A DNA stretch of 64,000 bases from Gammaproteobacteria bacterium (lineage in GTDB: Bacteria > Pseudomonadota > Gammaproteobacteria > Eutrophobiales > Eutrophobiaceae), in contig JANQNX010000006.1 in the NCBI GenBank assembly GCA_028279365.1, positions 62,001-126,000 of the forward strand, read 5' to 3'. The position numbers were made by a program, and so were the translations under genes. Under the pieces are notes generated by a model. It did not search any database. It was not told the DNA's origin and saw nothing but the letters and a program-made list of their open reading frames with translations. Positions 32,004 through 33,171 of the stretch are shown one piece after another (the first letter of the stretch is position 1; every line of letters begins with the position of its first letter).

Positions 32004-32079
32004 TGGTGGGCCGTATAGGGATCGAACCTATGACCTTGGGATTAAGAGTCCCCTGCTCTGCCAGCTGAGCTAACGGCCC
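32004..32079 (-). tRNA. tRNA-Lys (CUU)
   Basis: Full cloverleaf on the minus strand with acceptor GGGCCGT/ACGGCCC, anticodon loop CTCTTAA (anticodon CTT), T loop TTCGATC and encoded CCA. Position 27-43 is a G-A mismatch at the top of the anticodon stem. The 5' part of this gene (32041-32079) is duplicated exactly 1,090 bp away, so this copy appears to be assembled from an incoming 5' half and a resident 3' half. Confidence 0.94.
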
Positions 32080-32081
32080 AT
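32041..32081. repeat. 41-bp direct repeat, left copy (5' half of tRNA-Lys)
   Basis: Identical over 41 bp to 33131-33171. It covers the tRNA-Lys gene from its 5' end to just past the anticodon loop plus two flanking bases. The flanks differ on both sides. It looks like an attachment-site copy produced by insertion at the anticodon loop. Confidence 0.85.
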
Positions 32082-32253
32082 TAAAAATTACTTCTTTTGT
32101 TTACAATGACTTATATAAGTTATTGATACTTCGCGAAATCCAAAAGTTTAGAGTTCTTCAGTGTCAATATCGGAATTCACTTTGGACAAAGTTCTTGTGA
32201 CCATATATTTTATTTAAATTACCTTGGTAGTATTAGTCCCATGGAAATTCTTT

Positions 32254-33051
32254 TTAATTATTTGGGTATAGATTTCCATTTAATACTTTTTCAATACACG
32301 GTTCTTTCCACACTCTACCTAATTGTACTTCGATAAGGTCTTTAGGAATTATACGACCAGAATAAACACCTATTACATCAGCGTGAAAACGATACACATT
32401 TCGAGCATCTCCAATACCAATACTTCTTCGTTTGTACAATACCACTGGTGATCCCGACATACCTTGACGTGTTGCTGTATCGATATAGAACAATGGTAAG
32501 TTATCGATATCCAAAATCGGTTCACTAGCAATGCTCGCTGACTTCCAAATAGGTGTATATCCTTCAACAGTAATACCAAATGGATATCCAATCACAAATA
32601 GATCTTCTCCAATTTGGATTTCAGAATTATCGTAGGGGTCAATTTCATCAATAGCCGAATATATATCTACTATTTCATTATCATCTTCTATTTCAACAGG
32701 TAATGCTGCAACATCTATTTGACTACCTTGTTCAGCATGTTGAAACCATTTTGCATTATAGTCGTTATCGTATAAGTGGTGTGTTAATTCTTCTAGCTCA
32801 TAATGCCCTTGGTCAACTTTTTTTCTGTAGCCATATGTTTTAATTTTATCTGGTATCGCAGCATCTCTATGTATCACCGCATTTGTTTCGGGGTGTCTAC
32901 CTGAATAATTATGCCAATTTGAAACTAAATATAACGCTCCTTTGTTACGCACATAAAAAGCTGTTCCACAACCTAGTATTACATCCTCATACAATATTTC
33001 TATATATACCGTTGAAATACTAATTGGATTAATATTTGCGAAATTAACCAT
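32254..33051 (-). CDS. Trypsin-like serine peptidase, probably cytoplasmic
   Basis: A 265-residue protein of the chymotrypsin/trypsin fold. The triad is readable: His47 (SNWHNYSG), Asp113 (SQIDVAALPV) and Ser199 (RQGMSGSPVV). There is no signal peptide, membrane segment or PDZ domain, so it is not a DegP/HtrA type; it looks like a stand-alone intracellular peptidase. Base composition is more AT-rich than flanking core genes. It is the only gene between two exact 41-bp copies of a tRNA-Lys half, which makes it the single cargo of a small insertion. Its RBS is weak (GAAG). Function is unknown; a role in conflict or defence is only a guess. Confidence 0.88.
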   Translation of the reverse strand: MVNFANINPISISTVYIEILYEDVILGCGTAFYVRNKGALYLVSNWHNYSGRHPETNAVIHRDAAIPDKIKTYGYRKKVDQGHYELEELTHHLYDNDYNAKWFQHAEQGSQIDVAALPVEIEDDNEIVDIYSAIDEIDPYDNSEIQIGEDLFVIGYPFGITVEGYTPIWKSASIASEPILDIDNLPLFYIDTATRQGMSGSPVVLYKRRSIGIGDARNVYRFHADVIGVYSGRIIPKDLIEVQLGRVWKEPCIEKVLNGNLYPNN

Positions 33052-33130
33052 ACGACTAACAATTCTTCAAAACTTTGACACTCTAAGCTAATTCAAAGCT
33101 AACATACTGTGATATATGTAGAGTAACTTA

Positions 33131-33171
33131 ATTAAGAGTCCCCTGCTCTGCCAGCTGAGCTAACGGCCCAT
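33131..33171. repeat. 41-bp direct repeat, right copy (orphan 5' half of tRNA-Lys)
   Basis: Exact copy of 32041-32081, lying 7 bp before the 3' end of tRNA-His. The 3' half of the tRNA is missing here: the sequence changes to unrelated DNA immediately after the anticodon loop. It is thus a non-functional tRNA fragment and probably the resident 5' half left after insertion. Confidence 0.85.

What the first reader, a model, noticed from the sequence alone, without database searches (positions are those of the whole stretch)
32004..33171. Single-gene trypsin-like protease unit inserted in a tRNA-Lys anticodon loop, with exact 41-bp ends
An intact tRNA-Lys lies at one end of about 1.1 kb of DNA and an identical 41-bp copy of its 5' half at the other; the copy starts exactly where the anticodon loop ends, 1,090 bp away. 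The only gene between them is a 265-residue intracellular-type serine peptidase with an intact triad (His47, Asp113, Ser199). No integrase is present. Most tRNA-targeting integrases rebuild the 3' half; here the 5' half seems to have been brought by the insert. It could be a tiny non-autonomous element carrying one effector gene.
Basis: partly seen in the sequence, partly recalled or inferred. Interest (0 to 1): 0.72.

Follow-up and report, generated by a model that had tools for sequence, protein, structure and literature searches.

The report
One-gene protease cassette in tRNA-Lys
A 1.1-kb piece of foreign DNA carrying a single protein-cutting enzyme gene, probably for defence against viruses, has inserted into a bacterial tRNA gene and repaired it by bringing its own copy of the front half; such islands usually bring the back half, are larger and carry their own integrase.

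Summary
tRNA-Lys(CTT) is intact at 32004-32079 (-); an exact 41-bp copy of its 5' half sits 1,090 bp away, next to tRNA-His, where relatives have an uninterrupted Pro-Arg-His-Lys group. Joining the two flanks gives a tRNA-Lys identical (76/76) to that of a syntenic relative, whose 3' flank also matches. So 1,090 foreign bases (GC 33% against 44%) entered the anticodon loop and replaced the 5' half. The only gene is a trypsin-fold protease with an invariant triad, related to the candidate defence family PDC-S45; its relatives sit on plasmids, viral contigs and tRNA islands, including one 8.5-kb defence island in Paraburkholderia with the same 5' geometry and no integrase. The same genome holds a second one-gene unit, a ClpP-like protease, at tRNA-Leu(GAG). 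5'-type tRNA islands are known but rare (159 of 3,919 in Islander), and Islander discards units under 2 kb or without an integrase. I read this as a minimal, integrase-less tRNA cassette inserted by a tyrosine recombinase acting in trans: a new variant of a known kind. Not shown: mobility, the recombinase, and any defence function.

The parts
32041..33130 (-). the 1,090-bp insertion: new tRNA-Lys 5' half plus 1,049 bp of foreign DNA, GC 33.2%
   Evidence: absent from the aligned orthologous sites of relatives
33131..33171 (-). displaced original 5' half of tRNA-Lys(CTT), nt 1-39 plus 2 nt, next to tRNA-His
   Evidence: exact 41-bp copy; position matches ancestral Lys
33052..33130 (-). 79-bp leader between the 5' fragment and the protease start
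32254..33051 (-). 265-aa trypsin-fold serine protease, PDC-S45 relative, no signal peptide evident
   Evidence: Pfam Trypsin_2 1.2e-8; PADLOC PDC-S45 1.7e-16; triad invariant; AF2 pLDDT 89.5, DegS/HtrA-like fold
32082..32253 (-). 172-bp non-coding stretch between protease stop and restored tRNA-Lys
   Evidence: no significant internal repeats, no minus-strand promoter-like site
32004..32079 (-). working tRNA-Lys(CTT): element 5' half (32041-32079) joined to host 3' half (32004-32040)
   Evidence: identical to G007 tRNA-Lys
31924..32003 (-). native 3' flank of tRNA-Lys, with a tRNA-derived hairpin
   Evidence: matches the G007 tRNA-Lys 3' flank; 83% over 158 bp including the tRNA
33179..33254 (-). 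tRNA-His(GTG), ancestral neighbour of tRNA-Lys
33831..33859 (-). promoter-like site upstream of tRNA-Pro, possible promoter of the whole group (inference)
   Evidence: 10 of 12 consensus matches, best in the region; number of sites no higher than in shuffles
24261..24335 (-). decayed full-length second tRNA-Lys(CTT)-like copy, 87% identical

Best explanation
A minimal integrative cassette of 1,090 bp entered the anticodon loop of the chromosomal tRNA-Lys(CTT) by site-specific recombination. Its attachment site carried a copy of the tRNA 5' half, so the working gene became cassette 5' half plus host 3' half, and the old 5' half was left beside tRNA-His. It encodes no recombinase, so a tyrosine integrase must have acted in trans (from a helper element, now or at the time). 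The cargo is one cytoplasmic trypsin-fold protease, most likely an anti-phage effector. It lies in the same direction as the tRNA group and could be read from the group's promoter, together with the restored tRNA-Lys. Shown: insertion, empty site, 5'-half replacement, foreign composition, protease family and (predicted) fold. Inferred: recombinase type, action in trans, defence role, expression.
For: Exact 41-bp copy ending at the anticodon loop. Uninterrupted Pro-Arg-His-Lys in relatives. Joined flanks reproduce the G007 tRNA-Lys 76/76, and the 3' flank matches. Insert GC 33.2% against 43.7 +/- 3.2%, lower than all 630 same-size windows. No protease copy at this site in 58 relatives. Relatives of the protease inside tRNA-flanked islands: tRNA-Val with exact 47-bp 3' half and integrase, Paraburkholderia tRNA-Gly with a 5' half (1-40, 97.5%) and no integrase, E. 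ludwigii tRNA-Met, a viral contig with tRNA-Met. The Paraburkholderia island also holds retron II-A, Aga nuclease and RmrA/T matches. Other integrase-less mini-units: tRNA-Leu(GAG) with a ClpP-like SDH protease in this genome and with a HigBA-like pair in G019.
Against: No excised circle, no second copy and no polymorphic strain of this species were available. No recombinase in this genome can be tied to the site. No convincing arm-type repeats at the unit's ends. The defence role rests on family names and neighbours; the excess of PADLOC hits in adjacent genes over distant ones is modest.
Confidence: 0.6

Rival explanations
1. Remnant: a larger, autonomous 5'-restoring island with its own integrase inserted here, then lost everything but the protease and both ends.
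For: Autonomous islands with related proteases exist; G033 of the same family has an integrase beside its tRNA-Lys(CTT) and a protease relative about 7.6 kb away; mobile elements often decay.
Against: Both ends are intact, the 41-bp fragment has no mutation although nothing is known to constrain it, the protease is intact, and no integrase remnant is seen as an ORF in the 251 non-coding bases. Another integrase-less one-gene unit in the same genome and one in G019 suggest small size is a state, not an accident.
Confidence: 0.25
2. Homology-facilitated illegitimate recombination: incoming DNA with the protease upstream of a tRNA-Lys recombined homologously in the tRNA and joined by chance at the anticodon loop.
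For: Only one junction needs to be non-homologous; tRNA-Lys sequence is conserved in the family.
Against: The break falls at the standard anticodon-loop crossover; other protease-bearing islands are bounded by half-tRNA copies.
Confidence: 0.07
3. The element carried a complete replacement tRNA-Lys and split the host gene, as the 39-kb tRNA-Leu(CAA) island in this genome did; the host 3' half lies elsewhere.
For: Same layout at tRNA-Leu(CAA): 5' fragment, one gene, full foreign tRNA; host 3' fragment 37.6 kb off. A decayed tRNA-Lys lies at 24261-24335.
Against: The 3' half and 3' flank at 32004 match the native G007 gene; the 24261 copy is full-length, not a 3' half; no other 3' half was found in the genome.
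Confidence: 0.05
4. Assembly artefact joined at the 41-bp repeat.
For: Draft genome of 17 contigs; no reads to check.
Against: Both junctions lie inside a 159-kb contig; an exact empty-site match is not expected of a chance mis-join; similar units recur at other tRNAs.
Confidence: 0.03

Closest known systems
tRNA-targeted genomic islands of the Islander catalogue (Hudson et al. 2015, PMC4383910), 5'-fragment class
   Same: tDNA and displaced fragment bound the insert; anticodon-loop crossover; 5' fragment lies upstream. 159 of 3,919 islands are of this class.
   Different: Islander requires an integrase and at least 2 kb; this unit has neither (1.09 kb, one gene).
Additive flexible genomic island fGI-2 of 'Ca. 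Methylopumilus' (PMC10872708)
   Same: Same tRNA-Lys(CTT); repeats of one tRNA end (ACCAGCTGAGCTAATCCCCC, which by my reading is the reverse complement of the 5' end); islands from 330 bp and one CDS upward.
   Different: There the repeats are 20 nt and recur in varying number; here one 41-bp fragment and one gene. I found no mechanism stated for them in the passages read.
Protease-bearing integrative elements at tRNA-Val in G297 (L057) and tRNA-Met in Enterobacter ludwigii (L231)
   Same: Related protease inside an island bounded by half-tRNA copies.
   Different: 7-10 kb, own integrase, 3' half restored.
Paraburkholderia BL25I1N1 tRNA-Gly defence island (L203)
   Same: 5' half copy upstream, full tRNA downstream, related protease, no integrase ORF.
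   Different: 8.5 kb with retron, RmrA/T and Aga nuclease genes.
PDC-S45 candidate defence protein (PADLOC)
   Same: All 34 aligned family members match the model.
   Different: Scores are moderate; whether PDC-S45 itself protects against phage was not established here.
Trypsin-like protease and nuclease pairs in Hachiman, AVAST, Lamassu and DRT (PMC12799240)
   Same: Trypsin-like protease in antiphage context; some members weakly match LmuA, HamA and RT-Protease models.
   Different: There the protease is fused to a defence enzyme and paired with a nuclease; here it stands alone.

Membership tests
tRNA-integrated genomic island (Islander definition) | full tRNA and a same-strand end fragment on the correct side | tested here: met
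tRNA-integrated genomic island (Islander definition) | target tRNA uninterrupted in relatives (empty site; my added test) | tested here: met
tRNA-integrated genomic island (Islander definition) | integrase gene inside the island | tested here: not met
   only one ORF, a protease
tRNA-integrated genomic island (Islander definition) | length 2-200 kb | tested here: not met
   1,090 bp
PDC-S45 / Trypsin_2 protease family | profile match and His-Asp-Ser triad | tested here: met
PDC-S45 / Trypsin_2 protease family | protection against phage | not testable with these tools
   needs an experiment
Additive flexible genomic island cassette (Methylopumilus fGI-2 type) | partial tRNA-Lys(CTT) repeat bounding a small gene set | tested here: met
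Additive flexible genomic island cassette (Methylopumilus fGI-2 type) | several repeats / stepwise addition of cassettes | tested here: not met
   one fragment only; a decayed full tRNA-Lys copy lies 7.7 kb away
Tycheposon | tyrosine recombinase in a tRNA-bounded element | tested here: not met
   no recombinase in the unit

The most novel reading that the evidence does not exclude
A class of integrase-less, one-gene tRNA cassettes, able to restore either tRNA half, moves effector genes (proteases, toxin-antitoxin pairs, defence genes) between bacteria with recombinases supplied in trans, and is invisible to island finders that demand an integrase and at least 2 kb.
Probability: 0.35. Interest if true: 0.75.

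Novelty: new variant of a known kind. Interest (0 to 1): 0.52.

Why it matters
If small tRNA cassettes without integrases are common, surveys of mobile DNA that demand an integrase miss them by design, and with them a set of single-gene effectors. This locus gives exact ends, an empty site and a testable enzyme. It also links a candidate defence protease to a defined route of entry into the chromosome.

Tried and rejected
Tandem duplication of a larger segment: rejected, similarity ends at the 41-47 bp block. Full replacement tRNA as in the Leu(CAA) island: rejected by the native 3' flank. Group I intron: rejected, the complete tRNA is intact at one end, although G047 does have a group I intron in this same tRNA. 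Close protease relatives by single-sequence scans of genome contigs and viral contigs: none; the alignment found 145 and 41. The tRNA 5' half, or 5' half plus inner end, in viral contigs: none. Truncated tRNA-Lys 5' halves in 369 genomes of the same class: six hits, four are natural tRNA variants, leaving this genome and a 178-bp gene-less unit at tRNA-Lys(TTT) in G332. Integrase arm sites at the ends: not convincing. The tRNA-Leu(CAA) integrase's relatives do not show a consistent 5'-side habit. Tyrosine integrases near family members: 7 of 80 genome loci, 9 of 39 viral loci, no strong link. Defence genes next to versus far from family members: several distinct systems near, fewer far, not a strong contrast.

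Full report
What is there. Minus-strand order is tRNA-Pro, tRNA-Arg, tRNA-His, a 41-bp fragment that is the 5' half of tRNA-Lys(CTT), one protease gene, and an intact tRNA-Lys(CTT). The fragment (33131-33171) and the 5' half of the intact gene (32041-32081) are identical over 41 bp and differ at once outside, apart from a few chance matches. In tRNA numbering the block ends at nt 39, one base past the anticodon loop. The anticodon loop is one of the recognised crossover regions of tRNA islands (Islander Table 1).

Empty site. A search of 58 relatives and ARAGORN on the fetched loci show Pro-Arg-His-Lys without the insert, mostly with 4-35 bp between His and Lys and a few longer spacers. G007 is syntenic on both sides: cysS upstream; downstream the same response-regulator gene, tRNA-Leu(TAG), tig, clpP and clpX that the window has further along. 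Joining the window's two flanks gives a 76-nt tRNA-Lys identical to that of G007, and the DNA after it also aligns with G007. The 3' half and its flank are therefore native, and the 5' half of the working gene came with the insert. Insert GC is 33.2%, below every one of 630 windows of that size in the 64 kb.

The gene. The 265-aa protein matches Pfam Trypsin_2 (1.2e-8) and PADLOC PDC-S45 (1.7e-16). His47, Asp113 and Ser199 (GMSGSP) are invariant in 34 relatives. AlphaFold2 gives pLDDT 89.5, and the fold resembles DegS/HtrA protease domains without a PDZ domain. Best identities are about 38-39%, in distant bacteria, so the gene was probably not inherited within this family. Relatives occur on 92 plasmid records and 41 viral-contig stretches; plasmid neighbours include tyrosine recombinases, a SIR2 protein, AbiEii and a PD-(D/E)XK nuclease.

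Relatives in tRNA islands. In G297 the closest class relative lies in a 7.4-kb element between tRNA-Val and an exact 47-bp copy of its 3' half, with an integrase. In Enterobacter ludwigii (L231) and one viral contig (L250) a relative lies between tRNA-Met and a 46-47-bp 3'-half copy, with an integrase nearby. In Paraburkholderia sp. BL25I1N1 (L203) a relative lies between a 5'-half copy (nt 1-40, 97.5%) and the full tRNA-Gly, the same geometry as here; that island has no integrase ORF and holds retron II-A, Aga nuclease and RmrA/T matches. In G033, same family as the window, an integrase sits beside tRNA-Lys(CTT) and a protease relative lies 7.6 kb away, but I could not find the far end of that island.

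Other mini-units. Scanning the neighbourhoods of this genome's tRNAs showed a second one-gene unit: tRNA-Leu(GAG), then a 398-aa ClpP-like SDH protease (PF01972, 1.9e-18) and a small ORF, then a 61-bp copy of the tRNA's 3' part (58 of 61), unit GC 33.6%, no integrase. At the same tRNA in G019 the unit is 0.85 kb with a HigBA-like pair (named from its look, not by a profile search) and an exact 58-bp copy. A more decayed 1.2-kb unit lies at tRNA-Phe. Small integrase-less units at tRNAs are therefore recurrent in this family.

Mechanism. The anatomy is that of site-specific integration with gene restoration, in the rarer 5' configuration. The unit encodes no recombinase. The genome has two strong matches that look like XerC/D and three other tyrosine recombinases, none tied to this site. 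I therefore favour recombination in trans, with a shrunken island as the main rival. Transcription could run from a promoter upstream of tRNA-Pro through the protease to tRNA-Lys; the scan supports this only weakly.

Known or new. Islander lists 159 islands with 5' fragments among 3,919, but rejects units under 2 kb or without an integrase. Methylopumilus fGI-2 islands at the same tRNA, down to 330 bp and one CDS, are the closest precedent. The combination seen here, one gene, 5' restoration, no integrase and a candidate defence protease, is a new variant of that known kind. Mobility and defence are untested.

Noticed in passing
L067 9445-10902 and L066 1290-1347 (own contig C4): A ~39-kb island splits the host tRNA-Leu(CAA) at the anticodon loop (core GATTCAAAATC) and carries a complete foreign tRNA-Leu(CAA) beside its integrase: replacement of the whole tRNA rather than restoration of one half.
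   Followed up: partly
L150 8053-10036 (own contig C6): One-gene unit with a ClpP-like SDH protease between tRNA-Leu(GAG) and a 61-bp 3' copy; no integrase.
   Followed up: partly
L291 2222-3159 (G019): 0.85-kb HigBA-like toxin-antitoxin unit at tRNA-Leu(GAG) with an exact 58-bp 3' copy.
   Followed up: partly
L203 5696-14297 (Paraburkholderia sp. BL25I1N1): Integrase-less 8.5-kb defence island (retron II-A, PDC-S45, Aga nuclease, RmrA/T) bounded by a tRNA-Gly(CCC) 5' half and the full gene.
   Followed up: partly
window 31885-32003; L056 6855-7017; L143 3716-3890; L148 8643-8820: After several tRNAs lie ~150-200-bp hairpin arrays; in three of them a 19-22-nt copy of the tRNA 3' end closes the array. 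Arrays after the two tRNA-Lys genes contain stretches complementary to, and copies of, their own tRNA's anticodon or T arm, changing with the tRNA.
   Followed up: partly
window 24261-24335: Decayed full-length second tRNA-Lys(CTT)-like copy; about 23 kb lies between tRNA-Lys and gene 7505-8527 that is absent in G007.
   Followed up: no
L018 1001-1240 (G047): Group I intron (RF00028, 78.8 bits) inside tRNA-Lys(CTT) at the anticodon loop.
   Followed up: yes
L011, L012, L013 (genus g4): tRNA-Arg(TCT) interrupted at the anticodon region by ~0.8 kb with a conserved ~136-aa ORF, intron-like, but no Rfam group I match.
   Followed up: partly
L145 7829-8110 (own contig C14): tRNA-Met preceded by two tandem ~105-bp decayed copies of its 5' half.
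   Followed up: no
L054 6110-6170 (G001, same genus, contig end): A tRNA-Lys fragment covering about nt 25-76, cut by unrelated DNA: another insertion in the same tRNA in the sister species.
   Followed up: no
L097 1258-8847 (G011): 7.5-kb region with IS-like genes between tRNA-Lys(CTT) and a 47-bp 3' copy: the same tRNA used in the 3' configuration.
   Followed up: no
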